DNA of 64,000 nucleotides from an uncultured Sphingomonadaceae bacterium (GTDB taxonomy: Bacteria; Pseudomonadota; Alphaproteobacteria; Sphingomonadales; Sphingomonadaceae), in NCBI GenBank assembly GCA_947499255.1, contig CANMNF010000001.1:372001-436000 (forward strand), given 5' to 3'. A program made the translations under genes and the position numbers. The notes below the pieces were generated by a model, which had not been told where the DNA came from, did not search any database, and saw nothing but the letters and a program-made list of their open reading frames with translations. This document shows positions 9,569-55,214 of the stretch, piece after piece. Within the stretch, counting starts at the first letter, position 1. Every line of letters starts with the position of its first letter.

Positions 9569-10032
9569 CCCGCACACCCCATAATCGAAGTCTTCGCAAG
9601 TCGCTCCTGGGCACAGCGTTTCTCGCGCTTGCAGCCTGTTCAAGCGTCGCGCAGGCGGCAAGCTACACGATGTTTCGTGATCCCGGCTGTGGATGCTGCG
9701 TGAAATGGGCGGAACATTTCGAAGAGGGCATGGACGCACACGTCACGACGACGAACAGCACCGATATGGCGGAAGTCAAAATGGACAAAGGCGTGTCGCG
9801 CGAGCTGTGGTCCTGCCATACCATGGAGGTCGAAGGCTATGTCATCGAAGGCCATGTTCCTACAGCGGCGATCGAGAAGCTTCTGCGCGAACGTCCTGAA
9901 GGTGTAACGGGCCTTGCTGTACCGGGTATGCCGCTTGGCTCGCCCGGCATGGAAGCCGGTAAGCGCGTCCAACCCTATCAAGTCATCGCCTTCGGCAGCA
10001 TCGGCCAGCGCGTTTTCGCGAGTTACCCCTGA
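9565..10032 (+). CDS. DUF411 metal-binding protein
   Basis: 155 residues if translation starts at TTG 9565, which overlaps the upstream stop (TTGA) and has AAAGGAG in front; an ATG at 9538 would lie inside the methyltransferase. Leader SLLGTAFLALAACSSVAQA looks like a signal peptide with a possible lipobox (LAAC). The mature part starts with YTMFRDPGCGCCVKWAEHF and contains SCHTMEVEGYVIEGHVP and GMPLGSPGME, the defining Cys/His/Met motifs of DUF411, a family linked to copper resistance in Proteobacteria. Probable periplasmic copper binder. Confidence 0.88.
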   Translation: MTRTPHNRSLRKSLLGTAFLALAACSSVAQAASYTMFRDPGCGCCVKWAEHFEEGMDAHVTTTNSTDMAEVKMDKGVSRELWSCHTMEVEGYVIEGHVPTAAIEKLLRERPEGVTGLAVPGMPLGSPGMEAGKRVQPYQVIAFGSIGQRVFASYP

Positions 10033-10115: not shown

Positions 10116-10400
10116 TCATTTTGCCATCTTCTCAACAAGCGCGATAAGCTCAGCGACCTTTTCCGACTGGTCGACTGTGTCATTAGAAGCGAGAGCTTCT
10201 TGGATGCAGTGTTTTGCGTGAATATCGAGGACCTTAATCCGTGCTTTCCGGGCAGCGGCCTCAAGCGCGATGAGTTGCTGGAGGATGTCGACGCAGTAGC
10301 GGTCCTCTTCCATCATTTTGATAATGCCTCGGGCCTGGCCTTCAACCCGCCGCATGCGAGTGATCGGGTCTGCAAACTTGCTCACATTCTCTTCGTCCAT
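10116..10400 (-). CDS. csoR: CsoR-family copper-sensing repressor
   Basis: 94 residues from ATG 10400 with GGAGAAG ribosome site; an in-frame start 17 codons upstream lacks one. The DUF156 fold is clear: PITRMRRVEGQARGIIKMM, then C36, and H61-A-K-H-C65. Cys36, His61 and Cys65 fall at the numbered Cu(I) ligands known for Mycobacterium CsoR. Copper binding releases the DNA. Divergent from the small membrane gene and copper ATPase, with a matching operator in between. Confidence 0.93.
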   Translation of the reverse strand: MDEENVSKFADPITRMRRVEGQARGIIKMMEEDRYCVDILQQLIALEAAARKARIKVLDIHAKHCIQEALASNDTVDQSEKVAELIALVEKMAK

Positions 10401-10468
10401 CGTCGCTTCTCCGTTGTCGAGACCCATTCCCGATTTCGATGCCACTTGCAAATCTTGCGATATATACT

Positions 10469-10485
10469 ATACCCCCCTATGGTAT
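10469..10485. promoter_or_regulatory. CsoR-type operator
   Basis: ATACCCCCCTATGGTAT is an inverted repeat (ATACC/GGTAT arms, C-rich left half) of the form bound by CsoR/FrmR/RcnR-family repressors. It lies 69 bases upstream of csoR and 19 bases upstream of the DUF5676 gene start, where it would block the promoter of the copper ATPase unit. Confidence 0.7.
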
Positions 10486-10503
10486 ATGTGAAGGAGAAAT
10501 TTG

Positions 10504-10782: not shown

Positions 10783-10862
10783 TCTGAAAACAACGACGGC
10801 ATTCCCATCGCAGCCGGAGGCTTTCGAGCAAGGGATGGCATCACAACGAAATGGAGCAAGCG

Positions 10863-13070
10863 ATGGACCACTCTCATTGCGATCACGACCACGCCAGCGC
10901 CCCTATCTCAAGTGACGTGAGATATGACAAGGTCCCGGCTGACTATAGTGGGACCGTCTATACGTGCCCAATGCACCCGGAAGTGCGGCAGACCAGGATG
11001 GGGTCCTGCCCGATTTGCGGGATGGGCCTCGAGCTTGAATCCGCCGCCATGGTTGAAGACGGGCCGAATCCCGAACTGGTCGATTTCACCAGACGCTTCT
11101 GGGTCGGCGCGGTTCTTACACTGCCGCTGCTCATACTCACTATGGGGCCTTTTCTGGGCTGGTCAGGCGTGCGCGAGATATTTGGCGAGCGGAGCACGCT
11201 CTGGATCGAATTCGTTCTTGGCACACCCGTGGTTTTGTGGTGCGGCTGGCCATTCCTCCAGCGCGGCTTGAACTCGTTCAGAACCTGGAATCTGAACATG
11301 TTCTCTCTGATCGCAATGGGCGTAAGCGCGGCATGGCTATTCAGCGTCGTTGCAATCATTGCACCCGGCGTCTTTCCGGATGGCTTTCGCGACGCTAACG
11401 GTCATGTCGGCGTCTACTTCGAAGCAGCAGCCGTGATTGTGACGCTGGTCCTATTGGGGCAGGTCATGGAGCTGCGCGCTCGAGAAGGCACCGGCAAAGC
11501 CATTCGAGCGCTTCTGGATCTAGCCGCCAAGACTGCCCGGGTGATCCGGGACGATGGATCAGAAGAGGAGATCCCGCTCGAACATGTTGCGGTGGGCGAC
11601 AGGGTTCGAGTGCGCCCGGGTGAAAAAGTTCCGGTGGACGGCACGGTGCTTAAAGGACGCTCCTCGATCGATGAAAGCATGATCACAGGCGAACCTGTGC
11701 CCGTTGAGAAGGTAGAAGGCGAAACGGTCACTGGCGCGACGATCAATGGCACGGGTAGCCTCGAGATAGAGGCAAGACGGGTCGGCTCAGACACAATGCT
11801 TGCCCAGATTGTCGATATGGTTGCTGCCGCCCAGCGCTCGCGCGCACCAATCCAGAAATATGCCGACAAGGTGGCCGGACTGTTCGTCCCGGCAGTCATT
11901 GCGATTGCGGTCCTGGCATTTATCGCGTGGGCAGTCTGGGGACCGCAGCCTTCATTGGCTTATGCACTGGTCGCCGCGGTTGCAGTGCTGATTATCGCAT
12001 GTCCATGCGCTTTGGGCCTCGCAACGCCGATGTCGATCATGACTGCGACGGGCCGCGGCGCGCAAGTTGGTGTGTTAATCAAGAACGCCGAGGCACTTGA
12101 GCGCTTTGAGACCATCGACACATTGATCATCGACAAGACAGGCACCCTTACCGAAGGCAAACCGCGACTAATGGCCGTGATGGCCGAGCCAGGCTTCGAC
12201 CAAACGGAGATACTCCGACTGGCAGCCTCGCTTGAGCGAGGGTCAGAGCATCCCCTTGCCGAAGCGATCGTGAGGGGCGCAGAAGAGCGTAGCATTGAGC
12301 TGACAAGCGTTGAAGACTTCGAAGCGATTACGGGCAAGGGCGTGATAGGACGGGTCTCCGAAAAGTCGGTGGCTCTCGGCAATCTTGCGCTGGTGACGGA
12401 TATGGGCCTTGATAGCGGGTCGCTGAACGAAATAGCCAATACGAGGCGTGACGAAGGTGAGACCGTCATGTTTGTCGTCGTCGACCGCCAGATCGCAGGA
12501 CTCCTAGCGGTGGCTGATCCGGTTAAGGAAACAACACCGGCCGCGATTCAATCGCTACACGAGCTCGGACTTACGATCATCATGGCCACAGGCGATAACG
12601 AACGCACCGCAAAGGCCGTCGCGAACCGGCTCGGTATCGACAAGATCGAAGCTGGAGTGCTGCCCGACGACAAAGCCAGGCTCATTTCTCAGTTGCAGGC
12701 GGAAGGCGCGAAAGTTGCTATGGCCGGAGACGGCGTCAACGATGCGCCAGCACTAGCGCAGGCAGATGTCGGCATCGCCATGGGAACCGGGGCGGATGTG
12801 GCCATCGAGAGCGCCGGGATTACTCTGGTCAGAGGCAACCTTGATGGGATCGTTCGGGCTCGGAAGCTGGCGCGCGCAACCATGCGCAATATTCGGCAAA
12901 ACCTGTTTTTTGCGCTCATCTACAATGCATCCGGCGTGCCAGTCGCCGCAGGATTGCTCTATCCATTCTTCGGAATTTTGATCAGCCCGATGTTCGCTGC
13001 CTTCGCTATGAGCGCCTCCTCGATCTCAGTTGTGGTGAATTCCCTGCGACTGCGAAGTGCGAACCTATGA
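10863..13070 (+). CDS. copA: P1B-type copper-exporting ATPase
   Basis: 735 residues from ATG 10863 (GGAGCAAGCG in front; the ATG at 10851 has no ribosome site). N terminus is His-rich ([10 protein letters not shown]) followed by a heavy-metal-binding domain YTCPMHPEV...CPICGMGLE instead of the usual CXXC ferredoxin-like domain. Then TGEP phosphatase loop, the membrane CPC motif (about residues 380-382, [11 protein letters not shown]), phosphorylation site D424KTGT, HP motif in GSEHPLAEA and hinge [20 protein letters not shown]. This is the Cu(I) exporter class of the inner membrane. Expected CsoR control through the operator at 10469. Confidence 0.96.
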
Positions 13071-13233: not shown

Positions 13234-14595
13234 ATGGGGAACACTTTGCCTACAAACGAGCACCGCGACGAGCCGAGCGACAAGCAATCGATAAGCCTTT
13301 TGGGCGGCGTTGCGATGGGAACTGGCGTGATGATTGGCGCTGGAATTTTCGCGCTGACGGGCCAGATTGCCGAACTTGCCGGCCCCCTGTTTCCGCTGTC
13401 CTTTGTTGCGGGCGCTTTGGTAACGTCGCTCGCAGCTTACAGCTACATCAAGATGTCAAACAAGTGGCCATCTTCTGGCGGGATCGCGATGATCCTTCAG
13501 AAGGCATATGGGCCCGGCGTGGTTGCGGCATCGGCGTCTTTGCTGATGGCTCTATCGATGGTTATCAATGAAAGCCTTGTTGCCAGAACCTTCGCCACAT
13601 ACGCGCTGCGTCCGTTTGGCCTCGAAACTACCGGGTGGTTGGTTTCTCTTGCAGCATTGGCACTCATAGTATTCGCCTACCTCGTCAACGCCGCCGGCAA
13701 CAAATCGGTAAGCGGATTCTCGGTCATAATGTCTGCGATCAAAATAGGCGGGATCGTCCTCTTCGCCGTAGCTGCCATATGGGCTAGCGGCTTTTCTTCC
13801 GGCGCTTTTTCGCAAACGGTCTCAATGACTGGAGTGGAAGCCCTGCTCGCTTCGGTCGCCTTTTCCATACTGGCCTTCAAGGGCTTCACCACCATCACCA
13901 ATAGCGGCGGTGAGTTGGTCGATCCGCACAAGAATGTTGGCCGCACGATCATGATTTCGATCGCAGTCTGCATCGTCGTTTATCTTCTTGTCGCGATCGC
14001 TGTTGGCTCAAGTCTGAGCATTGAAGAGATTGTCAAGGCGCGTGATTATTCGCTTGCAGCCGCTGCGCGGCCCGCTTTGGGCGATCTGGGCTTCTACTTC
14101 ACCGTGACGATCGCAATTGCTGCCACCACGTCGGGCGTCATTGCGAGTGTTTTCGCTGTGTCCCGGATGCTGACGATGCTGACCGAAATGAAAATGATCC
14201 CTCATAGCCACTTCGGCATGTCCGGCGGAATCCGCAGCCATATGCTGGTCTACACGGTTGTGATCGCGGGAACACTCGCCGTCCTGTTTGATCTTTCGCG
14301 GATCGCTTCGTTGGGAGCTTTCTTTTATCTCGTAATGGACATGCTTATCCATTGGGGCGTTTTCCGCAATCTTCGCAAAGAGGTGGGCGCACGCGCATCC
14401 ATCCTGCTTGCCGCTCTGGCCGCGGACGCCGTTGTGTTGGCCGCTTTCACCTCGGTGAAACTGAAAAGCGATCCTGCGATTGTAGCCTATGCCGCGGTGG
14501 GGATCGCCACGGTCTTCTTGGCCGAGTGGTTCTATCTGTCACGGAAGCCCGAAGACCCTCAAGAAATGACCGAGCATGAGGCGGCGGGAGATTAA
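13234..14595 (+). CDS. APC-family amino acid permease
   Basis: 453 residues, about 12 hydrophobic segments. The N-terminal helix 1 signature GVAMGTGVMIGAGIFALTGQ has the conserved G-x-G-I-F core of amino acid-polyamine-organocation permeases. No cytoplasmic C-terminal domain beyond about 20 residues. Substrate unknown. It stands alone between the copper ATPase and the thiol operon; a role in supplying sulfur amino acids or other ligands under metal stress would be inference only. Confidence 0.88.
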   Translation: MGNTLPTNEHRDEPSDKQSISLLGGVAMGTGVMIGAGIFALTGQIAELAGPLFPLSFVAGALVTSLAAYSYIKMSNKWPSSGGIAMILQKAYGPGVVAASASLLMALSMVINESLVARTFATYALRPFGLETTGWLVSLAALALIVFAYLVNAAGNKSVSGFSVIMSAIKIGGIVLFAVAAIWASGFSSGAFSQTVSMTGVEALLASVAFSILAFKGFTTITNSGGELVDPHKNVGRTIMISIAVCIVVYLLVAIAVGSSLSIEEIVKARDYSLAAAARPALGDLGFYFTVTIAIAATTSGVIASVFAVSRMLTMLTEMKMIPHSHFGMSGGIRSHMLVYTVVIAGTLAVLFDLSRIASLGAFFYLVMDMLIHWGVFRNLRKEVGARASILLAALAADAVVLAAFTSVKLKSDPAIVAYAAVGIATVFLAEWFYLSRKPEDPQEMTEHEAAGD

Positions 14596-14710: not shown

Positions 14711-15472
14711 ATGGCAACGAAAACAGCTCAGGTCTATCGGATGGTTATGGAGGACCATGTTTGTCCTTATGGCATAAAGACCGTCGACTTGCTCAAGCGG
14801 CAAGGCTTCACAGTAGACGACAACCATCTCACAACCAGAGAGCAGACCGACGCTTTCAAGGAGAAGCACGACGTCGAAACGACGCCACAGACCTTTATAG
14901 ATGACAAGCGGATCGGCGGATATGACGACGTTCGTGAACACTTTGGTAAAAGCCGATCCCAGCCTAAAGAAGGCGAGACCAGCTATCAGCCTGTTGTCGC
15001 TATATTCTTGGTCGCGTTTTTACTTGGGCTCGGGTTAAGCTGGTCGTTCTTTGGCACACCCTTCACCATCCGCGCTGGAGAATGGTTCGTCAGTTTGTCG
15101 ATGACTCTGCTTGCTCTCCAAAAGCTGCAGGATGTGCGCAGCTTCTCGACAATGTTCCTCAATTACGACCTGCTCGCTCAGCGCTGGGTGCCTTACTCGT
15201 TCGTCTATCCCTTCGGCGAGGCTGCGGCCGGTATTCTAATGACCGCAGGCGCACTAGTGTGGCTGTCTGCGCCGCTTGCGCTGTTTATTGGCACGGTTGG
15301 AGGCGTCAGCGTATTCAAGGCCGTTTACATCGACAAACGCGAGCTCAAGTGCGCCTGTGTCGGCGGAAGCAGCAACGTACCGCTGGGTTTCGTCTCGCTG
15401 ACCGAGAATCTGTTCATGATCGCCATGGGTTTGTGGATGGGAGCGAAGGCGCTGGGTTGGATCAGTGTCTGA
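14711..15472 (+). CDS. Glutaredoxin domain fused to MauE/DoxX-like membrane domain
   Basis: 253 residues from ATG 14711. Residues 1-75 form a glutaredoxin: active site HVCPYG, cis-Pro loop ETTPQTFID, and GGYDDVREHF. Residues about 95-253 contain four helices of the MauE/methylamine-utilisation redox-membrane family with a CACVGG motif near residue 216, often proposed as the partner dithiol. The fusion suggests electron passage from cytosolic glutathione/thiols to a membrane dithiol. First gene of an overlapping operon; the next gene begins 8 bases before its stop. Confidence 0.86.
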   Translation: MATKTAQVYRMVMEDHVCPYGIKTVDLLKRQGFTVDDNHLTTREQTDAFKEKHDVETTPQTFIDDKRIGGYDDVREHFGKSRSQPKEGETSYQPVVAIFLVAFLLGLGLSWSFFGTPFTIRAGEWFVSLSMTLLALQKLQDVRSFSTMFLNYDLLAQRWVPYSFVYPFGEAAAGILMTAGALVWLSAPLALFIGTVGGVSVFKAVYIDKRELKCACVGGSSNVPLGFVSLTENLFMIAMGLWMGAKALGWISV

Positions 15473-16175
15473 TCGTTCCGAAACCTCCGATACTGTAATT
15501 GCAGAAGATACCGCCTCGTGGCGTCAGACTTATGATGCCAATGCACGACTTTACACCCTTATGGCGGCCGGCTTTCATCTCACCGGCGTTGCCCGGCAGC
15601 GTAGGCGCATGATCGACGCACTTCGGTTGCAAGAAGGCGATACCGTCATCGATCTTTGCTGTGGATCGGGACAGAATTTCGCAGAACTTCGGCGACGCAT
15701 CGGTCCAAGTGGGCGACTTATCGGCGTCGACATTTCTCGCAACATGCTCTCGATCGCAAGAGAGCTGATCGACAAGAATGGGTGGCAAAACGTCGAACTC
15801 ATCGAGGCTGATATCGCCGATTACGATCCACCTTCGGCAATGCGCGCGGCGATCTCAACTTTCGGTCTGGATATCGTGCCAAGTGCAGAGCGCATCGTCG
15901 AAGCCTTTGCCCATAAGATGCCTGAGGGTACGCGTCTGGGCCTACTTGGCTCACAGGAACCGGAGAACTGGCCCGACTGGCTCGTGCGCCTCGGCATCTG
16001 GATGAACAAGCCGTGCGATATAGAGCGAAAACACCTTTCAATTCGACCGGATAAGGCGGCTGCGCGCACTCTGGAGCAAGAGGAGCGTCAGGATTTTTGG
16101 TTCGGGATCTTTTACTGGTCCGTTTGCCGCAGTGCCCGGCAGGTACGAAAGCTGGAACAGGAGTCCACGCAATGA
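15465..16175 (+). CDS. Class I SAM-dependent methyltransferase (UbiE-like)
   Basis: 236 residues from GTG 15465, overlapping the upstream gene by 8 bases. Motif I VIDLCCGSGQNF with DISRNMLSIAREL for SAM binding and an acidic AAISTFGLDIVP region. C-terminal part is less conserved and ends in an aromatic stretch DFWFGIFYWSVCRSARQVR. Many relatives act on quinones or small lipophilic substrates; the substrate here is unknown. Its stop overlaps the next start (ATGA). Confidence 0.83.
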   Translation: MSDRSETSDTVIAEDTASWRQTYDANARLYTLMAAGFHLTGVARQRRRMIDALRLQEGDTVIDLCCGSGQNFAELRRRIGPSGRLIGVDISRNMLSIARELIDKNGWQNVELIEADIADYDPPSAMRAAISTFGLDIVPSAERIVEAFAHKMPEGTRLGLLGSQEPENWPDWLVRLGIWMNKPCDIERKHLSIRPDKAAARTLEQEERQDFWFGIFYWSVCRSARQVRKLEQESTQ

Positions 16176-16588
16176 TGCTCCTCGCTTTAGCAGTCGCAAC
16201 GGTATTGTTTGTGTTATCGATCATTTCTCACCTCGGTATTCTTGGCGTTGCCCATTCATTTGTGGATAGACGTGGCGACCTGATCGCCAAGCTTACCGTG
16301 TCACTGCTGGTGCTTTTCTCGCATCTTTTCGTTGCTGCGCTGTTCGCGGTCGGTTTCTGGATTGGGATCGAGCTAGATCTTGGCAGCTTCGACAAGACAT
16401 CCACCATGGGATGGATGGACTATTTCTATTTTTCGCTGATCAACGTGACGACCTTGGGTCTGGGGGACATCTATCCCACACAACATCTGAGAGTTCTTGC
16501 TGGCATCGAAGCCCTGACGGGCTTCGCTCTGATCAGTTGTTCAGCGCAGCTATTCTGGAAGATGATGACGAACGGAGAAAAGAAATGA
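16172..16588 (+). CDS. Two-helix potassium-channel-like protein (Ion_trans_2)
   Basis: 138 residues. Three or four hydrophobic segments; between the last two lies a pore loop and selectivity-filter sequence NVTTLGLGDIYPT (T-x-G-x-G-D), the signature of small K+ channels of the PF07885 class. No RCK or cyclic-nucleotide domain is fused, so gating must be intrinsic or by partners. Embedded by 4-base overlaps between a methyltransferase and a DUF305 protein, an unusual setting for a channel. Confidence 0.82.
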   Translation: MMLLALAVATVLFVLSIISHLGILGVAHSFVDRRGDLIAKLTVSLLVLFSHLFVAALFAVGFWIGIELDLGSFDKTSTMGWMDYFYFSLINVTTLGLGDIYPTQHLRVLAGIEALTGFALISCSAQLFWKMMTNGEKK

Positions 16589-17112
16589 ATGACAGCACAC
16601 ATCACTCTGAGGGAGGCGGAGGCGGCAGTTACTGGCGTTTCATGGCGATGGTCTCGACCTCTACCGTCATCATGTTCTTTCTGATGTATTCCAACACATT
16701 CGATGCGGACGATATCTTCTGGAGCGAAACACGTTTTTGGATGACGTTCGTGATGGGCGGGATGATGATGATCGTGATGCTCCTTTTCATGTGGGGTATG
16801 TACAAGGATCGGACCAAGAATTTCATCATCCTAGGAGTGGGGGCGCTTACATTCGCGCTCGCTCTCTGGCTCGTCCGCAGTCAGACGACCGTCGATGATA
16901 CTGAATACATGGCCGCCATGATCCCCCACCATTCGATCGCGATCATGACTAGCGAGCGCGCAAGTCTCAAAGACCCCCGCGTCCGTGAGCTGGCCAAGGC
17001 CATCATCGTGGCCCAGCGCCGCGAAATCGCCGAAATGAAATATCTCATCGACGATATCGAGGAAAACGGTGTCCGAACCGAAGAACGCCTTCCCGAGGAG
17101 ATGCAAAAATGA
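16585..17112 (+). CDS. DUF305-family membrane protein
   Basis: 175 residues from ATG 16585 overlapping the channel stop. Three Met-rich hydrophobic segments (including MTFVMGGMMMIVMLLFMWGM) followed by a DUF305 ferritin-like domain with MAAMIPHHSIAIMTSERA and a long helix ending EMKYLIDDIEENG. DUF305 proteins are copper-associated and carry HH and Met ligands. The orientation suggests a periplasmic metal-binding domain. Next gene starts 4 bases before the stop. Confidence 0.85.
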   Translation: MNDSTHHSEGGGGGSYWRFMAMVSTSTVIMFFLMYSNTFDADDIFWSETRFWMTFVMGGMMMIVMLLFMWGMYKDRTKNFIILGVGALTFALALWLVRSQTTVDDTEYMAAMIPHHSIAIMTSERASLKDPRVRELAKAIIVAQRREIAEMKYLIDDIEENGVRTEERLPEEMQK

Positions 17113-17597
17113 AGAAGATCTTGATCATAACGCTTGCAGCGCTTCCGCTGGCGGGCTGCAACTCCAACACGGCACCAGGCAACGATAGGGAGGCCGCAAT
17201 GGACTCTCCGAGCCCTGCCGCACCGATTGAAGCAGCCGAGGAGGCGCTTGCAAATGTAAGCCCAGGGCTGATGCTTCCGGAAACGATGACGGACGCCGAT
17301 CTTACCGCACTTGGTGCGGAGAAATTGTGCCAGTTTCGCCTTACCGAGATTGCGTTCCCAAGCTTCGTTTATGGTGTCGATGGCAATGGAGCGATAAAGA
17401 TCAACGGCAGACTGATCCCCGTTTCAGCTGATGGGCCGGACAGCTATTCAAGCGGCGAGCTTCGCATCAAAACACGCATGCTCGATGATGAAGGAACGGC
17501 CGGTCTGCAAATGCAGGAAATGATCGTTGTCGCACCGCGCGCCAAAGACGAGTTCGGCTTTTGGGGCTACACAACATGCGGAAAAGACCAGATCTAA
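17109..17597 (+). CDS. Hypothetical lipoprotein
   Basis: 162 residues. Lipoprotein signal MKKILIITLAALPLAGC with lipobox LAGC, then a Pro/Ala/Glu-rich linker and a compact domain (about 55-162) containing two Cys residues, CQFRLTEIAFPSFVYGVDG and WGYTTCGKDQI, which may form a disulfide. No family recognised. Overlaps the DUF305 gene by 4 bases and its TAA overlaps the ATG of the 31-codon ORF that follows. Probably an outer- or inner-membrane-anchored periplasmic protein. Confidence 0.68.
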   Translation: MKKILIITLAALPLAGCNSNTAPGNDREAAMDSPSPAAPIEAAEEALANVSPGLMLPETMTDADLTALGAEKLCQFRLTEIAFPSFVYGVDGNGAIKINGRLIPVSADGPDSYSSGELRIKTRMLDDEGTAGLQMQEMIVVAPRAKDEFGFWGYTTCGKDQI

Positions 17598-17692
17598 TGG
17601 CGAATGGCCGACAAAGTATTCTGATTATCGGTCAGCTTCCCCGACACGCTCGCGCCGTGCGCGCGTACGGTCACACCGGACACACAATATGA
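17597..17692 (+). CDS. Possible 31-codon coupled ORF
   Basis: ATG at 17597 overlaps the lipoprotein stop (TAATG) and the TGA at 17690 overlaps the next ATG (ATGA), so the only gap in this otherwise overlapping operon is exactly filled. Product is short and basic (MANGRQSILIIGQLPRHARA...). The opening SILIIG looks like the first strand of a Rossmann fold, so it may also be the remnant of a gene. No function assigned. Confidence 0.35.
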   Translation: MANGRQSILIIGQLPRHARAVRAYGHTGHTI

Positions 17693-18396
17693 GCCAACCA
17701 GAGAAGATCGCCGTTTTTGGTGCCGGTGGCAGCACTGGAGCTGAAGTTCTGAAGCGCGCGCGAAAACGCGGCCTCAGCATTCGCGCACTTGAACATAGCC
17801 TGCCGAAGCAAAGCGAACGCATTGCTGGCTTTGAGTATGTCAAGTGCGACGTGTTACAAGACGATCTGAGCGAGGCCCTTGAGGGCTGCGATGCTGTCAT
17901 TTCGGCGCTTGGCGTCGCATTCGGGCCGCGAACCGCCATCGATCCTCCTCCCCTATACACCGAGGGTACAAGGAACATCGTCAAGGCTATGGACAAGCTG
18001 GAGGCCAAGCGCATAGCAGTCATATCCGCCGCTTTTGTCGAGCATCAACCGAGCGTCCCAGCTTGGTTTGAACTCACCGCCAAGCCGGCGCTTGCTAATA
18101 TCCTCGAACAGATGCGCGCAATGGAAGCGATGCTGCAAGCCCATGAACATCTACAATGGACTGCGGCGCGCCCGGGTTGGTTGCTGGACGAACCATTCAC
18201 AGGCGAGGCGGTTGTATCGGACGAGAGGCTGGCCGAAGGCTGCTTTCGCTGTCGTCATGCCGATCTGGCCGAATGCCTCCTCGACTTCATCTGCGAAAAC
18301 AGCTGGCTCCAAGCCAAACCAGCGATCGGCAAGCCGGAGGCAGGCGAATTTGAAAGTCTCGCTGCGGTCAAGTCAGAATTGGAGCTCGACCTCTAG
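17689..18396 (+). CDS. NAD(P)-binding NmrA/atypical SDR-like protein
   Basis: 235 residues from ATG 17689. N-terminal dinucleotide-binding motif IAVFGAGGSTGAEVLKRARKR, then CDVLQDDLSEALEGCDAVISALG at strands 3-4 and AARPGWLLDEP at the position typical of NmrA/SDR_a5 proteins (flavin or quinone reductase relatives). A catalytic Tyr-x3-Lys is not evident, as in atypical SDRs. Belongs to the 14.7-19.8 kb operon; substrate unknown. Confidence 0.78.
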   Translation: MSQPEKIAVFGAGGSTGAEVLKRARKRGLSIRALEHSLPKQSERIAGFEYVKCDVLQDDLSEALEGCDAVISALGVAFGPRTAIDPPPLYTEGTRNIVKAMDKLEAKRIAVISAAFVEHQPSVPAWFELTAKPALANILEQMRAMEAMLQAHEHLQWTAARPGWLLDEPFTGEAVVSDERLAEGCFRCRHADLAECLLDFICENSWLQAKPAIGKPEAGEFESLAAVKSELELDL

Positions 18397-18459
18397 CGTC
18401 TTAGCGTGACCACGCGAGACGCAGTTTGTTCGTTCGGCAAAATCAAGACGGAAAAGACT

Positions 18460-19812
18460 ATGCTTTTAGAAAAGATCAAAACATCCGGCCTGTCACACCT
18501 GTCCTATCTCATCGGATCCGGAGGAAAAGCGGCGGTGATTGATCCGCGGCGCGACTGCGACGTGTATGTCGAAAAGGCGCGGGCCCTTGGGTTGGAGATT
18601 ACCCATATTTTCGAGACACATCGTAACGAGGATCTCGTAACCGGTTCACCGATCCTCGCCCAGATTACCGGAGCAAAGGTCTTCCATGGCCCTAACGCAG
18701 GAGGCGAAGTGACATTTGCCGAAACCGCGACAGAGGGCGACAAGTTTAAAATCGGTCAGCTCATTATCGAAATACTTGAGACACCCGGCCACACCGACGA
18801 CCATCTTGCATTCGTTATCCATGACAACGCCTATCCTGAAGGTCCTGTCGGGGTTTTCACCGGTGATGCCTTGTTCGTTGGCGATGTCGGGCGGACCGAT
18901 TTCTATCCCGACCGCGAGCGCGAAGTCGCCGGTTCGCTTTACGACTCGCTCGAAAAGCTAAAGGCGCTTGGAGACCAGACGATCATCTATCCTGCGCACG
19001 GGGCCGGTTCGGTCTGTGGATCGGGAATGGCGGAGCGCGAATTCTCGACCATCGGGCACGAGCGCCGCAATAATCCGCGCTTGCTGATCGAAGATCGAGA
19101 GGCCTTTATCGAGGCGAAGGTGGCGGAACACCATTACCAACCTCCCTATTTCCGTCTTATGGAACGCCTCAACCTCCAAGGTACGGCGGCCGCCCCTCGT
19201 ATCATGCGCCCGCGCCGGTTGAGTCTATCGGAGCTGCGTGACGTCAAGACGGATCACTTAGTCGATGTGCGGGAGCCGATGGCTTATGCTTCGGGTCATT
19301 TTCCCGGATCAATGTGTTTGCCTGTTGGCATGATCTCCGCTTTTGCTGGGTGGTTTATTCGCGAGGGAGAAACGGTGGTTTTGGTGGGGGCCGACGAAGA
19401 CCAGCTCTCCGAGGCGATGTCGCATCTGACGCGCATCGGGGTCGACAACATTCTCGGCGGTTACAATGGGGTGGTTCCAGCGGCAGCCAACGGCATCGGA
19501 ATGGACTCTATCGCGATGATCGACACCGTCGCCGTCAAATCAAGGCTCGAGAACGAAGAAGCCAACTGGACCTTGCTCGACGTTCGCGATGCAGAGGAGC
19601 GGGCAAATATGGCAATCCAGTCATCGGAGCACATCTATGTCGGGGAACTCAACGAGCGCTGGACGGAACTCGATAAGCAGCGCCATTTCACGCTTATGTG
19701 CGCCAGCGGGATGAGAGCTAGCGTCGCGGCGGGCTGGCTTGCCAGTCAAGGTTTCAAGCAGCTCGATATCTACCTTGGCTCGATGGGAGCATGGATGAAT
19801 GATTCTCAGTAG
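18460..19812 (+). CDS. Persulfide dioxygenase-like metallo-beta-lactamase fold fused to two rhodanese domains
   Basis: 450 residues from ATG 18460. Residues about 1-235 resemble ETHE1: THRNED replaces the canonical THxHxDH, followed by ETPGHTDDHLAF, FTGDALFVGDVGRTDF and YPAHGAGS. The first His, second-motif His and Asp expected as iron ligands appear kept, while the second His of the first motif is Asn. Then rhodanese domain 1 (about 260-345) lacks a catalytic Cys, and domain 2 (about 360-450) has it in MCASGMRAS. Predicted to oxidise glutathione or protein persulfides to sulfite and move sulfane sulfur. Last gene of the thiol operon after a 63-base gap. Confidence 0.82.
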   Translation: MLLEKIKTSGLSHLSYLIGSGGKAAVIDPRRDCDVYVEKARALGLEITHIFETHRNEDLVTGSPILAQITGAKVFHGPNAGGEVTFAETATEGDKFKIGQLIIEILETPGHTDDHLAFVIHDNAYPEGPVGVFTGDALFVGDVGRTDFYPDREREVAGSLYDSLEKLKALGDQTIIYPAHGAGSVCGSGMAEREFSTIGHERRNNPRLLIEDREAFIEAKVAEHHYQPPYFRLMERLNLQGTAAAPRIMRPRRLSLSELRDVKTDHLVDVREPMAYASGHFPGSMCLPVGMISAFAGWFIREGETVVLVGADEDQLSEAMSHLTRIGVDNILGGYNGVVPAAANGIGMDSIAMIDTVAVKSRLENEEANWTLLDVRDAEERANMAIQSSEHIYVGELNERWTELDKQRHFTLMCASGMRASVAAGWLASQGFKQLDIYLGSMGAWMNDSQ

Positions 19813-19894: not shown

Positions 19895-20260
19895 GTGTCT
19901 TTTCTTCGCACCCTTGCACTTATGTCGTTATGCATCGGCCTTGTATTTCAGGTGTCTGCCCAGGCATCGGCTATGCCGCAGTCCGAGACGATGCTTGCGT
20001 CTGACTGTGCCGAAATGCAGCATCATGCATCGGAGGAAGAAGGGCACCATAGGGCTGGCGAGGATGCTAACGGCGCGTGCCAACAAATGTCGATCGACTG
20101 CCTTCTTTCGATGAACGCGATTTCTCCCGTTTGGATTGGAACCGATCAGGGAATTTCTCTAGAGAAGCCGATTGGCGAAGACTTGACGTATCTAAGAGGA
20201 AGCGAACCGCAATTCGGCAGCCGGGTGTCAGATCCGGACAGTCCGCCTCCCCGATTCTAA
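19895..20260 (+). CDS. Small exported His/Cys protein preceding the CusCBA operon
   Basis: 121 residues from GTG 19895 (GTG 19893 is out of frame; AGGGA nearby). Signal peptide MSFLRTLALMSLCIGLVFQVSAQASA, then MQHHASEEEGHHRAGED and two Cys residues (C-x6-C: ACQQMSIDC), ending in DPDSPPPRF. The layout resembles DUF2946-type proteins that stand at the head of heavy-metal RND operons, and matches the unrelated-looking but similarly built gene at 37146-37490. Likely a periplasmic metal-related accessory. Confidence 0.6.
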   Translation: MSFLRTLALMSLCIGLVFQVSAQASAMPQSETMLASDCAEMQHHASEEEGHHRAGEDANGACQQMSIDCLLSMNAISPVWIGTDQGISLEKPIGEDLTYLRGSEPQFGSRVSDPDSPPPRF

Positions 20261-20384: not shown

Positions 20385-21620
20385 ATGAAATGGTTCATAG
20401 GCGGAGCCCTCGTCGCGGCTCTATTGCCAACACACATCGCATTTGCGCAGCCACTAGGTTATGAAGAAGCCTTGCGCGCTGCGCGTGAAGATCAGCCGCT
20501 TTTGCAGGCCGGTGAAATGCGTGTCCGGGGATCGCGCGAAGCCTCAGAAGCAGCAGACGCGCTTCCGGACCCTATTCTGCGCGGCGGAATTGCCAATCTT
20601 CCGGTCACCGGACCGGTTGCCTTCGAATTGGATCGCCAGCTCCCCACCCAACTCAGCGTGGGGATCGAACAACCCATACCAAACTTGGCAAGGCGCAGGG
20701 CGCGACTGGGTGTTGCCAGCTCTGATACCCGTATTGCGGAAGTGCGACTGGGCGTTGCGGAACGCAGGATCGACGTCGCCACCGCCCTCGCTTGGGTTGA
20801 CCTCTATTTTGCTCAGGACAAGCTTGCGTTGGCGCATACGGCTCTGAGCGATTTGCGCCGGCTGTTGCCCGTCGCCAATGCTGCTGTCGCTTCGGGTTCC
20901 GCGCGTCCTGCCGAAAGCCTGGCCATCCGCCGCGAACTTCTCGCAATTGAAGATGCCGTTACGCGGATCGAAGCGGAACAGGACGCGGCGCAGGCCGCAC
21001 TTGCGAGCTATACAAATATCAGTGAACCCTCGGCGTCGGGCAGTCCACCCGCGTTCGAGGTTGACCGCGAGGCTCTGCTGAACCTGCTTGAGCTTAACCC
21101 GGAAATTCAACTGGCCGATGCGGAGAGCGGCCGCGCCGATGCGGGTGTTGACCTGGCTCGCTCTGCATTGCGGCCAGATTTTGGCGTGAGCGTCAATTAT
21201 GGCCGGCGCGACCCTGGGTTTGGTGACGCACTGTCGGTGATGGGGTCCGTAACTCTGCCAATTTTCTCTGGAAAGCGACAACAACCTCGCATCCGGGCCG
21301 CCGAAGCCGGCGCCGCTGCGGCCCAGGCTGAACGCGCCGACCGTTTGCGGGCGCTGCGGGTCCAATTTGAAACGGATATGGCCGCATGGCGAAGCGCCCG
21401 GCGTCAATGGGAGCGGGCGCGGGATGAGCTCCTACCTCTGGCACGCAGCCGGGTGGAATTCGAGACCGCCAGTTTCGCAGCTGAGCGTGCCGATCTCATT
21501 GATGTCATTTCAGCCAAAGCTGATCTCGCGCTGCTCGATCTGGAGATTCTCGAGCGAGAGGCCGCCACGGTCGCAATGGCAGTAAAAATCAGACTCTATT
21601 ATGGGGAGGCACGGCGATGA
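20385..21620 (+). CDS. cusC: TolC/CusC-family outer-membrane efflux protein
   Basis: 411 residues with signal peptide MKWFIGGALVAALLPTHIAFAQ. Two OEP repeats with long amphipathic helices: LGYEEALRAAREDQPLLQ at the start and RLRALRVQFETDMAAWRSARRQ in the second half. Forms the outer-membrane duct of the tripartite copper/silver pump. The stop overlaps the start of the adaptor gene by 4 bases. Assignment as CusC depends on the CusA type (HME4) downstream. Confidence 0.87.
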   Translation: MKWFIGGALVAALLPTHIAFAQPLGYEEALRAAREDQPLLQAGEMRVRGSREASEAADALPDPILRGGIANLPVTGPVAFELDRQLPTQLSVGIEQPIPNLARRRARLGVASSDTRIAEVRLGVAERRIDVATALAWVDLYFAQDKLALAHTALSDLRRLLPVANAAVASGSARPAESLAIRRELLAIEDAVTRIEAEQDAAQAALASYTNISEPSASGSPPAFEVDREALLNLLELNPEIQLADAESGRADAGVDLARSALRPDFGVSVNYGRRDPGFGDALSVMGSVTLPIFSGKRQQPRIRAAEAGAAAAQAERADRLRALRVQFETDMAAWRSARRQWERARDELLPLARSRVEFETASFAAERADLIDVISAKADLALLDLEILEREAATVAMAVKIRLYYGEARR

Positions 21621-23110
21621 CCGACGAAAAAGAACGTTTCACGCCGAAGCAGCGCACTTACGGCGCAATGGCGGCCATCGCGCTTGTGAGCCTGGCCGCC
21701 GGATATGGTCTTTCGACGCTTGGCGGCGAGAGCGAAGTTATGTCCGACGACGTCGCTGAGGGCGAGTGTGAGGACGTGCTTTATTGGTACGACCCCATGG
21801 TTCCCGGCCAACGCTTCGATGAGCCAGGCAAATCTCCATTCATGGATATGATGCTGGTCCCGAAATGCGCGGGCGAGTCTGCCACCGCAGGAGTTCAAAT
21901 TGATCCAGGGCTGGTGCAGAATTTCGGCATTCGCACCGCTCCAGCTGAGTTCGGAATCCTTGAGCCAGAGATAACTGTATCAGGTGCGCTTGCCTATAAC
22001 GACCGCAGTGTCGCCTTGGTGCAACCGCGTGCCGGTGGATACGTGCAGCGTACTTATGGATTAGCACAGGACGACCTGGTCGCCCGAGGCGCGCCTTTGG
22101 TCGATATACTTGTGCCCAGCTGGGGCGGAGCCCAACGCGAATACCTCGCTGTTCTCGATACTGGCGACGCAGCGCTTACCGATGCGATGCGGCAAAGGAT
22201 GCATTTGCTTGGCATGCCTGACGGTATCATCGCCTCCGTCGAACGGACGCGCCGCGCTCAGACGGTCATAACGGTCACCGCGCCTTCTGGAGGCGCTATC
22301 ACCTCGCTGGGGGTGCGCCCCGGAATGACTGTTATGGAAGGGCAGACTCTCGCAGAAATTACGGGCTTCTCACCGATCTGGTTGGAGGCCTCCGTTCCTG
22401 AGACACAGTCAGCAGACATTCGCGAAGGCCAGACCGTCAGCGCCAATCTGGCAGCGTTTCCCAATGAAAAGTTTGCAGGCCGGATCATTGCGATCCTGCC
22501 CAGCGCCGAAAGTGCGAGCCGAACGATCACTGTGAGGGCACAGCTTCCAAATCGGAGCGGGAGGCTTAAGCCCGGTATGTTCGCGCAAGTCTCCCTCACG
22601 CCAGACACTCGCCGCGCTCTGCTTGTCCCGTCTGAAGCGATCATCCGCACCGGCCGCCGCAACATCGTGATGCTCAGGCAAGATGAGGGCGCATTCCTTC
22701 CCGCAGAAGTCGAGATCGGGCGCGAAGCGAATGGCCAAACCGAAGTGCTTGCTGGTCTGACACAAGGCGAACAGGTCGTGATCTCCGGTCAATTCCTGCT
22801 CGATTCCGAAGCAAGTCTTTCAGGCATCGAAATCCGTTCGATCGATGGAGTCATGCCTGATGCGTCCAAAAACGAACAGGCTGGCAAGAGCTACAAGACC
22901 ACGGGTCGTGTGACGAAAATCGATGGTGATAAGATCACGCTCAATCACGCTCCAGTGCCGGAGTTGAGTTGGCCGAGCATGGTCATGCCATTTGAGCTGG
23001 AAGACGCGGCGTTGACCGCTGTTGTCGAAGTTGGAGATGAGGTCGAATTCACCTTCACACAGCACGATACCGGTCCGCGCATCGTGTCGATCAGAAAGGT
23101 GGGCCGATGA
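21617..23110 (+). CDS. cusB: Periplasmic adaptor CusB with fused CusF-like domain
   Basis: 497 residues. N-terminal membrane anchor, then a heavy-metal-binding segment [18 protein letters not shown]...[10 protein letters not shown] (about 47-80), the beta-barrel/lipoyl/hairpin body (about 90-405), and from about residue 425 a CusF-like OB-fold with [13 protein letters not shown], the Trp and Met residues of which bind Cu(I)/Ag(I) in CusF. So adaptor and metallochaperone are fused. The gene overlaps cusC and cusA by 4 bases each. Confidence 0.92.
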
Positions 23111-26100
23111 TCGCCCGGATTATCGACCTCTCGATCGCCAACCGGTTAATTATCGTTCTGGCTGCAATCGCTGTCACGCTCGCCGGTTTCTGGGCGGTGC
23201 GCGCAACCCCTGTGGATGCCATTCCTGACCTGTCCGATGTTCAGGTCGTGGTGCGTTCAAATTATGCCGGCCAAGCTCCGCGCATCGTCGAAGATCAGGT
23301 GACCTACCCACTCGCCACCACCATGCTTTCCGTTCCGGGAGCGCAGACGGTGCGCGGCTATTCGATGTTCGGCGACAGCTACGTCTACATCATCTTCGAA
23401 GACGGTACCGATCTCTATTGGGCGAGGTCGCGTGTTCTCGAATATCTCAATCAGGTTGAGGGCGAGTTGCCCGAAGGTGTGACCACAGCGCTCGGACCCG
23501 ATGCGACTGGGGTGGGATGGATCTACGAATACGCTCTGGTCGACCGCACGGGCGGCAATGATCTTGCAGGCCTCAGGAGCCTGCAGGACTGGTTCCTGCG
23601 CTACGAACTTCAGACCATTCCCGGCATCGCCGAAGTGGCGAGCGTGGGCGGAATGGTGAAACAATATCAAGTGGTTCTTGAACCCTATCGCATGGCATCG
23701 CTTGGCGTGACCCACAGCCAGGTTGTGCGCGCAATACAGGCGGCCAACCAGGAGGCCGGCGGTTCGGTGGTCGAGACGGGGGAAGCCGAGTTCATGGTTC
23801 GCGCGTCGGGCTATATCGAAGGACTCGATGACTTTCGCCAGATCCCGCTGAAGACGGTCGGCAATGGGATTCCAGTCACCCTTTCTGACGTTGCAACGAT
23901 CCAGCTGGGCCCTGAAATGCGCCGCGGGATCGCGGAGCTCAACGGAGAGGGCGAAGTCGCAGGCGGCATCATTGTGCTGCGCCAAGGCGAAGATGCGCGC
24001 GCCACGATCACGGCAGTCGAAGAAAAGCTGGAGATGCTCAAGGCGAGCCTGCCCGAAGGGGTCGAGATCGTCACGACCTATGATCGTTCACAGCTGATCG
24101 ATGCTTCTATCGACAACCTCACCGGAAAGCTGATTGCTGAATTCATTATAGTTGCAATCGTCTGCGCGCTGTTCCTTTGGCACATGCGCTCCGCTCTGGT
24201 TGCGATTGTCACTCTGCCACTGGGTGTCCTCGCCGCCTTCATTGTTATGCGCATTCAAGGAGTGGATGCGAACATCATGTCGCTGGGCGGCATCGCGATT
24301 GCAATTGGCGCAATGGTCGATGCGGCAATCGTCATGATTGAGAACGCGCACAAGCACATCGAACACTGGGAACGCGACAATCCGGATTCCGAACTTTCAA
24401 AGGGGGAACGATGGCGCCTCGTCGCTGACGCTTCGAAAGAAGTTGGGCCGGCCCTGTTCTTTAGTCTGCTCATCATAACCCTCTCCTTTCTGCCGGTGTT
24501 TACCCTGCAGGCGCAAGAGGGACGCCTTTTCGCACCGCTTGCCTTTACCAAGACCTATGCGATGGCGGCGGCAGCGATCCTGTCGGTGACCTTGGTTCCG
24601 GTTCTGATGGGATGGCTCGTCCGGGGTAAGATACCGTCGGAAGATTCCAATATCCTCAACCGCTGGCTGACCAAAGCCTACCGCCCCGGCCTCGACTGGG
24701 TCATGAAACGCCCAAAAGCGACGCTGGTAATCGCAGGGCTGGTTTTCCTCACCGCATTGGTCCCGTTCAGCCGCTTGGGCGGCGAGTTCTTGCCTCCGCT
24801 TGATGAAGGGGACTTACTCTACATGCCAAGCGCGCTGCCGGGGCTATCGCCAGGGGAAGCATCGGCGCTGCTTCAGCGGACGGACAGGCTCATCAAATCA
24901 GTGCCAGAAGTCGAGACCGTCTTCGGCAAGGCTGGCCGCGCGGATACGGCCACTGACCCCGCGCCGCTGACGATGTTCGAGACCACTATCCGGTTCAAGC
25001 CGCGCGAGGAATGGCGTGCTGGAATGACTCCCGAAAAGCTGGTCGATGAGCTGGACAAGGCCGTTCAGGTACCCGGCCTCGCAAATGTCTGGGTGCCTCC
25101 CATACGCAACCGTATCGACATGTTGGCCACCGGGATCAAAAGCCCGATCGGGGTCAAGGTCTCAGGTGAGAATCTGGCAGAAATCGAGCGCGTCGCGTTG
25201 CAGATCGAGAATGTTGCCAAACAAGTTCCGGGCGTGAGCTCAGCGCTTGCAGAGCGTTTGTCAGGAGGGCGCTACATCGATGTGGACATCGACCGGATCG
25301 CTGCGTCCCGCTACGGCCTCAATATTGCCGATGTCCAACAGATCGTATCCGGAGCCATAGGCGGCGCGAATATCGGGCGCACGGTCGAGGGACTGGCGCG
25401 CTATCCAATCAACGTTCGTTATCCTCGCGAAATCCGCGACAGTGTAGACGAAATCCGTGCTCTGCCAGTGCTTACTCCCGCTGGTCAGCAGATTACATTG
25501 GGGACAGTTGCGCAGGTGAGCGTGAGCGATGGCCCACCAATGCTCAAGAACGAACAAGGCCGTCTCGTCAGTGCGGTCTATGTCGATGTTCGCGGGCGCG
25601 ACCTCGCTTCAGTAGTGGGCGACTTGCAGACCGCCGTGGCCGACGGTGTCGATTTGCCTGCAGGCGTAAGCCTTTCTTACGCGGGACAATTTGAATATCT
25701 CACTCGGGCCTATGAGCGTCTGCAGATTGTCATTCCGGCCACGCTCGGCATCATTTTCTTGCTGCTCTATCTGATCTTCCGCCGCGTCGATGAAGCGATG
25801 TTGGTTATGGGAACTCTGCCTTTTGCCCTCACGGGCGGCTTCTGGCTGCTTTACCTCTTGGGTTACAATCAGTCGGTCGCAACAGCGGTTGGCTTCATTG
25901 CTCTTGCCGGGGTCTCCGCAGAATTCGGCGTCGTGATGCTGATCTATCTGAAGGCCGCGATGGAGCGACATTCGGGTGAGCCAACTGCGGAATCCGTTAC
26001 CAAATCCATCAGGGAGGGCGCGCTTCTTCGCGTTCGGCCGAAGGCGATGACCGTTGCCGTCATTCTGGCTGGCCTGTTCCCGATCCTGGTTGGCACGGGG

Positions 26101-26274
26101 GCAGGTTCGGAAGTTATGAGCCGGATCGCCGCGCCGATGATCGGCGGCATGATCACCGCACCCTTGTTGTCCATGTTCGTATTACCCGCCGCTTACCTCT
26201 TGATGCGGCGCCCCCGGCCTGAACGGCCATCACAATCCGAAGGAGAAGAAAAATGCGTACCACAACCCGCTTAA
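23107..26274 (+). CDS. cusA: Heavy-metal RND pump CusA (HME4 type)
   Basis: 1055 residues, two times six membrane helices with two large periplasmic loops. Helix 4 reads [20 protein letters not shown], the HME4 signature of Cu(I)/Ag(I) pumps, including the relay Asp. Start [20 protein letters not shown] and [20 protein letters not shown] are typical CusA/CzcA landmarks. Uses proton motive force to drive metal out through CusC. The cusF-like gene begins inside its last 22 bases. Confidence 0.96.
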
Positions 26275-42670: not shown

Positions 42671-42684
42671 GGAGGAGTAATGGT

Positions 42685-44177: not shown

Positions 44178-44183
44178 AGCGCG

Positions 44184-50087: not shown

Positions 50088-50100
50088 GGGGAGGGCTGAC

Positions 50101-52565: not shown

Positions 52566-52567
52566 TC

Positions 52568-55202: not shown

Positions 55203-55214
55203 GGACGGCAGGCC

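What the first reader, a model, noticed from the sequence alone, without database searches (positions are those of the whole stretch)
14711..19812. Overlapping thiol-redox, methyltransferase, K+-channel, DUF305 and persulfide-dioxygenase operon
Seven or eight genes overlap by a few bases: glutaredoxin-MauE fusion, methyltransferase, pore protein with T-x-G-x-G-D filter, DUF305 protein, lipoprotein, NAD(P)-binding protein, then a persulfide dioxygenase/rhodanese fusion. The combination is not one I know as a named system. It could link sulfane-sulfur handling, electron transfer to a membrane dithiol and metal binding, or protect against thiol stress from copper.
Basis: partly seen in the sequence, partly recalled or inferred. 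Interest (0 to 1): 0.75.

Follow-up and report, generated by a model that had tools for sequence, protein, structure and literature searches.

The report
Copper-resistance operon with thiol-protection genes
A row of redox, metal-binding, ion-channel and sulfur-oxidising genes is kept in the same order inside copper-resistance islands of several marine bacteria, and probably protects the membrane and the cell's thiols when copper is high; the individual jobs of several of the proteins are still unknown.

Summary
The genes are there, but only four junctions overlap (8, 4, 4, 4 bases). The block is the middle of a copper island: CsoR-type repressor and operator-like box, Cu-ATPase, DUF411, multicopper oxidase, CopB and CusCBA-like genes flank it. 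The order APC permease-glutaredoxin/MauE-channel-DUF305-DUF6692-NAD(P)-binding-persulfide dioxygenase recurs in 12 of 80 fusion-anchored and 10 of 32 DUF6692-anchored loci (overlapping sets), so it is not chance. The methyltransferase is not part of the conserved block (2 of 80). DUF305 sits beside DUF6692 in 32 of 32. Marks of a copper job: a six-methionine ladder in one DUF305 helix (59 of 59 sequences); a Cys and a His in the channel and Cys/Cys/His in the NAD(P)-binding protein, mostly absent from the few relatives compared outside copper loci; boxes at 27 of 27 CsoR genes, 20 with module genes downstream on the same strand. My reading: a copper-induced module that handles Cu(I) at the inner membrane (DUF305, channel, DUF6692) and repairs the glutathione/thiol pool that copper attacks (glutaredoxin/MauE, persulfide dioxygenase). 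Copper linkage is well supported; biochemical steps are inferred. New variant of a known kind; no description seen in the listings of ten library searches.

The parts
10116..10451 (-). CsoR-type repressor, Cu(I) triad C53-H78-C82
   Evidence: C, H and C at the spacing 25/4 that I recall for M. tuberculosis CsoR; conserved in 26 of 26 distinct sequences (window included)
10468..10486 (.). CsoR operator-like box TATACCCCCCTATGGTATA
   Evidence: Seen. One search searched with the window's own letters: no second site and none in 100 shuffles at up to 3 mismatches. ATACC-N5-9-GGTAT with at most 1 mismatch before 27 of 27 CsoR genes, 9 of 600 random stretches
10851..13070 (+). CopA-type copper P1B-ATPase (flanking gene)
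13234..14595 (+). APC-type amino acid permease, first gene of the conserved order
   Evidence: AA_permease_2
14711..15472 (+). Glutaredoxin-MauE fusion; C18 (CPYG) and C214/C216 (CxC) invariant
   Evidence: (75 distinct sequences); model
15465..16175 (+). Class I methyltransferase, lineage-specific insert in the block
   Evidence: only in L032 and L033 of 80
16172..16588 (+). Two-helix ion channel, filter TLGLGD; H105 and C123 mark the copper-linked clade, H20 and H51 are shared with other relatives
   Evidence: Ion_trans_2
16585..17112 (+). DUF305 half behind three hydrophobic helices (by eye); methionine ladder M53-M57-M61-M65-M69-M72
17109..17597 (+). DUF6692 lipoprotein; C17 lipobox, C74 and C157 conserved
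17598..17688 (+). Spacer between DUF6692 and the next gene; the 31-codon frame here recurs only in L032 among the spacers compared; others carry a GC-rich inverted repeat by eye
17689..18396 (+). NAD(P)-binding protein with added C53, C185-x-x-C188-x-H190
18406..19812 (+). CstB-like metallo-beta-lactamase / pseudo-rhodanese / rhodanese (start 18406 or 18460)
19895..20260 (+). His-rich exported protein before CusCBA (flanking)
   Evidence: (no Pfam)
20385..26274 (+). CusC, CusB, CusA-like efflux genes (flanking; named from recalled likeness, no family call made)
9538..10032 (+). DUF411 protein (flanking, conserved)
   Evidence: within 8 kb in 48 of 80 and 21 of 32 loci

Best explanation
A copper-stress module of a mobile copper island. 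(1) Copper is sensed by the CsoR-type repressor (its Cu site and operator-like box are shown; binding is inferred). (2) The DUF305 protein binds Cu(I) in the periplasm with its Met/His-His half and holds or passes Cu(I) along a methionine ladder that crosses the membrane (residues shown, location and transport inferred). (3) The two-helix channel and the DUF6692 lipoprotein act with DUF305 at the inner membrane; the channel most likely conducts K+ and its copper-clade Cys/His may let copper or thiol state control it (inferred). (4) On the cytoplasmic side the glutaredoxin-MauE fusion exchanges electrons between glutathione, its single glutaredoxin Cys and the CxC loop of the membrane domain, and so keeps membrane or copper-ligand thiols reduced (inferred). 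(5) The CstB-like enzyme oxidises glutathione persulfide, formed when copper drives thiol and sulfide oxidation, to sulfite and GSH; GSH is the cell's buffer for Cu(I) (inferred from the enzyme class). (6) The NAD(P)-binding protein with a CxxCxH site has an unknown redox or sensing role.
For: Copper genes around the block and within 8 kb in 69 of 80 and 26 of 32 loci; ordered block conserved; CsoR triad and box, 20 of 27 CsoR genes with module genes on the same strand within 4 kb downstream (genes in between were not checked); methionine ladder 59 of 59 plus 11 of 13 further membrane-type copies, against 40 Met of 958 hydrophobic-stretch residues in five other proteins; added Cys/His in the copper-linked channel and NAD(P)-binding clades; NAD(P)-binding subfamily mostly in the block (16 of 21 places); invariant C18, C214, C216 on one predicted side; dioxygenase keeps H54, H111, D136, C186 and C414; the soluble DUF305 protein CopM binds Cu(I) (PMC4335983, abstract and passages); PDO reaction GSSH to GSH plus sulfite (PMC12856154, passages).
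Against: No expression or phenotype data. In the window CsoR is divergent and its box lies 4.2 kb before the block, so co-regulation there is not shown; no box with fewer than two mismatches lies in the 260 bases before the fusion gene. Parts occur apart: 8 of 24 full-length dioxygenases lie away from DUF6692; 35 of 80 loci have the reverse order DUF305-fusion, mostly without DUF6692, NAD(P)-binding and dioxygenase genes; L033 keeps the fusion and the CusCBA homologues but lacks channel to dioxygenase. 6 of 32 DUF6692 loci and 11 of 80 fusion loci have no other copper gene of the five tested within 8 kb (some loci end early). The clade residues may follow descent only, and few relatives outside copper loci were compared (9 channels, 3 NAD(P)-binding). 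Two of 13 further DUF305 copies lack M53. DUF6692 and the MauE domain gave no clear structural match.
Confidence: 0.58

Rival explanations
1. Loose cargo: copper, sulfur and ion-channel genes with independent jobs sit together because they travel on the same mobile island; there is no joint mechanism.
For: Conjugation genes in the window; matches on plasmids (369 records with partial matches, none covering 80% of the query); dioxygenase found away from DUF6692 in 8 of 24 copies, one of them beside cytochrome bd genes; parts occur separately.
Against: Same order and strand over several genera (12 of 80, 10 of 32); NAD(P)-binding subfamily mostly in the block (16 of 21); residues present in the copper-linked clades and mostly absent from the relatives compared.
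Confidence: 0.2
2. Kef-like protection: the channel is opened by copper or by glutathione adducts, lets K+ out and acidifies the cytoplasm, which protects thiols; the glutaredoxin part reads the glutathione state.
For: Filter keeps the TxGxGD pattern in the window; conserved H105 and C123 in the copper clade; glutathione-linked neighbour. The Kef precedent is recalled.
Against: Only Ion_trans_2 found in the 138-residue channel, no ligand-binding domain; filter residue is Leu rather than Tyr/Phe; L046 and L058 carry changed filters and L099 lacks the pattern.
Confidence: 0.1
3. ScsB/DsbD-like reductant: the glutaredoxin-MauE fusion carries electrons from cytoplasmic glutathione across the membrane to reduce periplasmic copper-binding cysteines such as those of DUF411 or DUF6692.
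For: ScsB keeps ScsC reduced and ScsB/ScsC act in copper tolerance (PMC8900818, passages); Cys in DUF6692 (C74, C157) and DUF411.
Against: Only three invariant Cys, and the five-helix model with charge distribution puts all of them on the glutaredoxin side; the CxC loop is modelled with pLDDT mostly below 50, so a re-entrant loop is not excluded.
Confidence: 0.1
4. Primarily a sulfide/persulfide detoxification operon that happens to lie in copper islands.
For: CstB-like enzyme with the catalytic positions kept; its copies also occur outside copper loci.
Against: The fusion with DUF305 but without the dioxygenase is common (DUF305 66, dioxygenase 18 of 80 fusion loci); the regulator is of the copper (C-H-C) type.
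Confidence: 0.07

Closest known systems
Cue/Cus/Pco-type copper-resistance clusters (CsoR, CopA, multicopper oxidase, CopB, CusCBA)
   Same: Same kinds of flanking genes, CsoR-type repressor and box; copper context
   Different: Carries a glutathione/persulfide branch, a channel, DUF6692 and a Cys/His NAD(P)-binding protein that I do not recall from described clusters
Staphylococcus aureus CstB (persulfide dioxygenase-sulfurtransferase; cst operon under CstR, a CsoR paralogue; PMC5480029, passages)
   Same: Metallo-beta-lactamase, Cys-less rhodanese, Cys-bearing rhodanese; near full-length match to 3tp9 and 3r2u (that 3r2u is CstB is recalled)
   Different: THRNEDL where the solved relatives have THxHxDF/H; beside copper genes and a C-H-C repressor; an SQR gene was not searched for and none is among the genes named here
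CopM, soluble DUF305 Cu(I) protein of Synechocystis (PMC4335983, abstract and passages)
   Same: DUF305 half with the HH motif, Met-rich
   Different: Three hydrophobic helices with a six-Met ladder instead of a signal peptide; one half domain instead of two DUF305 domains; below the NCBIfam CopM cut-off (42.3 against 90 bits)
ScsB/ScsC suppressor of copper sensitivity (PMC8900818, passages)
   Same: Links thiol redox to copper tolerance through a membrane protein
   Different: Glutaredoxin and MauE replace the DsbD-like domains; redox Cys all predicted on one side
DoxX/SodA/SseA membrane oxidoreductase complex of mycobacteria (search listing only)
   Same: DoxX/MauE-type membrane protein with a rhodanese partner (likeness of DoxX and MauE is recalled)
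   Different: Glutaredoxin fused; not tested further

Membership tests
Glutaredoxin + MauE fusion | Pfam Glutaredoxin and MauE above gathering scores | tested here: met
   24.8 against 22.9 and 41.1 against 27 bits
Glutaredoxin + MauE fusion | Classical dithiol CPYC glutaredoxin site | tested here: not met
   CPYG, single Cys; C18 and G21 invariant in 75 sequences; monothiol type
ScsB/DsbD-like transmembrane reductant | Redox Cys able to face both sides of the membrane | tested here: inconclusive
   Three invariant Cys predicted on one side, but the CxC loop is modelled with low confidence and no membrane-topology program was run
CstB-type persulfide dioxygenase-sulfurtransferase | MBL domain, Cys-less rhodanese, rhodanese with Cys | tested here: met
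   C414 in CASGMR, no Cys at the matching place of the first rhodanese
CstB-type persulfide dioxygenase-sulfurtransferase | Mononuclear iron 2-His-1-carboxylate ligands | tested here: met
   H54, H111, D136 conserved in 23 distinct sequences and aligned to the matching motifs of solved relatives; triad described in PMC12856154; mapping by motif, not by structure
CstB-type persulfide dioxygenase-sulfurtransferase | Full MBL motif HxHxDH | tested here: not met
   HRNEDL in the window, conserved in the 23 sequences; 3r2u also lacks the last His
CstB-type persulfide dioxygenase-sulfurtransferase | Persulfide oxygenase and sulfurtransferase activity | not testable with these tools
   No enzyme assay
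K+ channel (Ion_trans_2) | Pfam Ion_trans_2 and TxGxGD filter | tested here: met
   45.7 against 22.5 bits; TLGLGD
K+ channel (Ion_trans_2) | Aromatic GYG/GFG filter | tested here: not met
   Leu at the position in at least 95% of 29 sequences; Ile in 9 of 9 compared relatives outside copper loci
CopM / DUF305 | DUF305 domain with HH motif | tested here: met
   41.5 against 27 bits; H115 1.00, H116 0.98 of 59
CopM / DUF305 | NCBIfam CopM equivalog cut-off | tested here: not met
   42.3 against 90 bits
CsoR copper repressor | C-H-C Cu(I) site and GC-tract operator | tested here: met
   the reference spacing and operator type are recalled
CsoR copper repressor | Copper-dependent release from the operator | not testable with these tools
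   Needs a binding or expression test

The most novel reading that the evidence does not exclude
The membrane-type DUF305 protein and the Cys/His-bearing two-helix channel form a Cu(I)-conducting or copper-gated pore: Cu(I) moves along the six-methionine ladder of DUF305 and the channel, and DUF6692 receives it outside, while the glutaredoxin-MauE fusion supplies reduced thiol carriers inside. That would be a Cu(I) path built from a potassium-channel fold and a methionine-lined helix, unlike P-type ATPases, RND pumps or Ctr-type channels.
Probability: 0.17. Interest if true: 0.82.

Novelty: new variant of a known kind. Interest (0 to 1): 0.52.

Why it matters
It joins copper resistance and persulfide/glutathione chemistry in one genetic unit, which is a testable form of the idea that copper toxicity is partly a sulfur-species problem. 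It also names proteins without a known role (DUF6692, membrane DUF305, glutaredoxin-MauE, the CxxCxH NAD(P)-binding protein, the Leu-filter channel) with precise residues to mutate. The methionine ladder in membrane-type DUF305 is a checkable prediction for a family that is common in this bacterial family.

Tried and rejected

Corrected on checking: first counts accepted short partial profile hits; one search recounts with hits over at least half of the profile, and these are the numbers given (any copper gene 72 became 69 of 80, multicopper oxidase 58 became 31, dioxygenase 21 became 18, seven-gene order 13 became 12 because L046 has only a piece of the dioxygenase). Multicopper oxidase and CopB are probably undercounted now, as hits were split.

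In one search identical proteins were counted once and hits covering less than 80% of the profile were left out. In one search six CsoR hits of 200 bases or less were left out, 27 kept. The nine channel relatives outside copper loci were picked from the weaker matches (12 channel stretches fetched; the other three lie beside DUF305 and do carry the Cys and His). Of the eight dioxygenases away from DUF6692, neighbours were classed with my profiles for all eight and by Pfam for ten proteins of four of them. Further DUF305 copies were picked by hand from the list; seven were of the soluble type and have no such helix.
Full report
Observation. Four junctions overlap by 8, 4, 4 and 4 bases; then come gaps of 91 and 9 (or 63) bases. 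The lipoprotein is Pfam DUF6692 (281 bits). The last gene may start at 18406 or 18460; I used 18460 and did not test the choice.

Setting. The window lies at 372001-436000 of contig C1 of a 2.96 Mb genome in six contigs; the closest named contig is titled uncultured Erythrobacter (L032, 100% rounded over the fusion protein). Around the block lie, in order: CopB, multicopper oxidase and a sigma-70 factor (minus strand), DUF2231, a second methyltransferase, DUF411, a CsoR-type repressor (minus strand), CopA ATPase, APC permease, the block, a His-rich protein, CusCBA-like genes (CusCBA and CsoR named by recalled likeness). F-type conjugation genes lie at 41-58 kb, so the island is probably mobile. 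On plasmids, 369 records have partial matches; the best, in Croceicoccus and Aurantiacibacter, have glutaredoxin, potassium channel, DUF305, DUF6692 and NAD(P)H-binding genes annotated.

Is it chance? Two anchors were used; counts are (hits over at least half of a profile, within 8 kb). Anchor 1: the fusion protein in named genomes (best 80 of 573). DUF305 66, DUF411 48, CopA 42, multicopper oxidase 31, channel 31, DUF6692 25, APC 24, NAD(P)-binding 22, dioxygenase 18, methyltransferase 2 of 80; any of five copper genes 69 of 80. Anchor 2: DUF6692 in 149 genomes of the family (over cut-off in 25 genomes, 33 places; 32 loci fetched): DUF305 on the same strand within 200 bases in 32 of 32, channel 20, fusion 16, APC 16, NAD(P)-binding 15, dioxygenase 15, any copper gene 26 of 32. 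The seven-gene order on one strand with gaps up to 1000 bases is in 12 of 80 (11 with gaps up to 400; the twelfth, L032, has the methyltransferase in between) and 10 of 32; the sets overlap. Titles of the 12 include Erythrobacter, Qipengyuania, Novosphingopyxis, Altererythrobacter, Pseudopontixanthobacter, Novosphingobium and Pacificimonas. Some of these blocks are nearly identical, so the copies are not all independent. In 35 of 80 loci, many with Rhodobacteraceae-type titles, the order is DUF305-fusion, often after CopA and a MerR-type gene and sometimes with the channel before DUF305. The NAD(P)-binding subfamily lies mostly in the block: 16 of 21 places in the 149 genomes. The dioxygenase is less tied: 16 of 24 full-length copies; of the other eight, one is in a copper locus (L147) and one beside cytochrome bd genes (L145).

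Regulation. The window's repressor has C53, H78, C82, conserved in 26 of 26 distinct sequences; the spacing matches what I recall for Cu(I)-sensing CsoR. A box of the recalled CsoR type lies at 10468-10486; searched with its own letters it is unique and absent from 100 shuffles at up to three mismatches. Before 27 of 27 CsoR genes (hits over 200 bases; six shorter ones left out) a box ATACC-N5-9-GGTAT with at most one mismatch lies within 260 bases; 20 of these CsoR genes have fusion, DUF305 or DUF6692 downstream on the same strand within 4 kb (genes in between not checked). Control: 9 of 600 random stretches, 1 of 96 before fusion hits, 0 of 51 before channel, 0 of 98 DUF305, 0 of 56 CopA, 0 of 43 APC, 0 of 25 CusA hits. 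In the window itself the box is 4.2 kb before the block, so control of this copy is inferred.

Anatomy. DUF305: three hydrophobic helices (by eye; no topology program run), then a half domain with MIPHH. In the second helix M53, M57, M61, M65, M69 and M72 are Met in 59 of 59 distinct sequences; all six also in 11 of 13 further membrane-type copies, five in the other two; Met is 40 of 958 residues in hydrophobic stretches of five other membrane proteins. Channel: H20, H51, H105 and C123 are at 0.97-1.00 in 29 distinct sequences from these loci; nine relatives outside copper loci have TLGIGD and Trp at 123 in 9 of 9 and His at 105 in 1 of 9, while H20 and H51 are shared. These nine were chosen as weaker matches, so this is a clade contrast. 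NAD(P)-binding: C53, C185, C188 and H190 in 22 of 22 distinct sequences; three relatives away from the block lack C53, C185 and H190, and one keeps C188. Fusion: C18, C214 and C216 are the only invariant Cys (75 sequences); the model (mean pLDDT 79.6, pTM 0.67) has five long helices that I read as membrane helices, which puts glutaredoxin and CxC loop on the same side; basic residues average 1.84, 2.32 and 2.96 in the stretches on that side against 0.68, 0 and 0 on the other, but acidic residues outnumber basic ones in the first two (3.36, 2.43). The CxC loop is poorly modelled. DUF6692: mostly beta, barrel-like by its weak matches (pLDDT 83.5), no clear relative.

Mechanism. Shown: genes, order, copper linkage, conserved residues. 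Inferred: Cu(I) binding by DUF305, K+ or Cu(I) passage through the channel, thiol exchange by the fusion, GSSH oxidation by the dioxygenase, the role of the CxxCxH protein. The link I favour is that copper attacks glutathione and sulfide chemistry and that the block restores it while Cu(I) is moved outwards by CopA and CusCBA. Literature support is for single parts: CopM binds Cu(I) (PMC4335983, abstract and passages); PDO turns GSSH into GSH and sulfite (PMC12856154, passages); CstB is under CstR, a CsoR paralogue, and modified low-molecular-weight thiols were proposed to free Cu(I) in S. aureus (PMC5480029, passages; there CsoR itself is said not to respond to sulfide stress); ScsB/ScsC link thiols and copper (PMC8900818, passages).

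Verdict. The co-occurrence is real and is a new composition of a known kind of system. The methyltransferase is a local insert. The most novel reading, a Cu(I) pore from DUF305 and the channel, is not excluded but unsupported by any functional datum.

Noticed in passing
window 60383-61300 (-): AbiEii-type nucleotidyl transferase (type IV toxin-antitoxin) near the conjugation genes.
   Followed up: no
window 41381-58034 and 117-1616: F-type conjugation genes TrbI, TraC, TraN, TraH, TraG and an AAA_30 protein, consistent with an integrated conjugative element.
   Followed up: partly
window 31384-37083 (-): A second RND efflux set: AcrB-type transporter and outer membrane protein.
   Followed up: no
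window 10504-10782: Small membrane-like protein directly behind the CsoR-type box, no Pfam match.
   Followed up: no
window 8747-9568: A second methyltransferase is the one that recurs in the island (within 8 kb in 17 of 80 and 10 of 32 loci).
   Followed up: partly
L033: Locus with fusion and methyltransferase followed directly by the His-rich protein and CusCBA homologues, without channel to dioxygenase: a natural partial block.
   Followed up: partly
L038, L039, L040, L044: Nearly identical blocks in contigs titled Pseudopontixanthobacter, Qipengyuania (two) and Altererythrobacter, suggesting recent transfer.
   Followed up: no
spacer after DUF6692 in L035-L053 type loci: GC-rich inverted repeat in the 90-110 base spacer before the NAD(P)-binding gene, seen by eye, not folded.
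   Followed up: no
L145 (G117:C3:31000-43000): Dioxygenase of the same subfamily near cytochrome bd oxidase genes, with none of my copper profiles hit in the 12 kb.
   Followed up: partly
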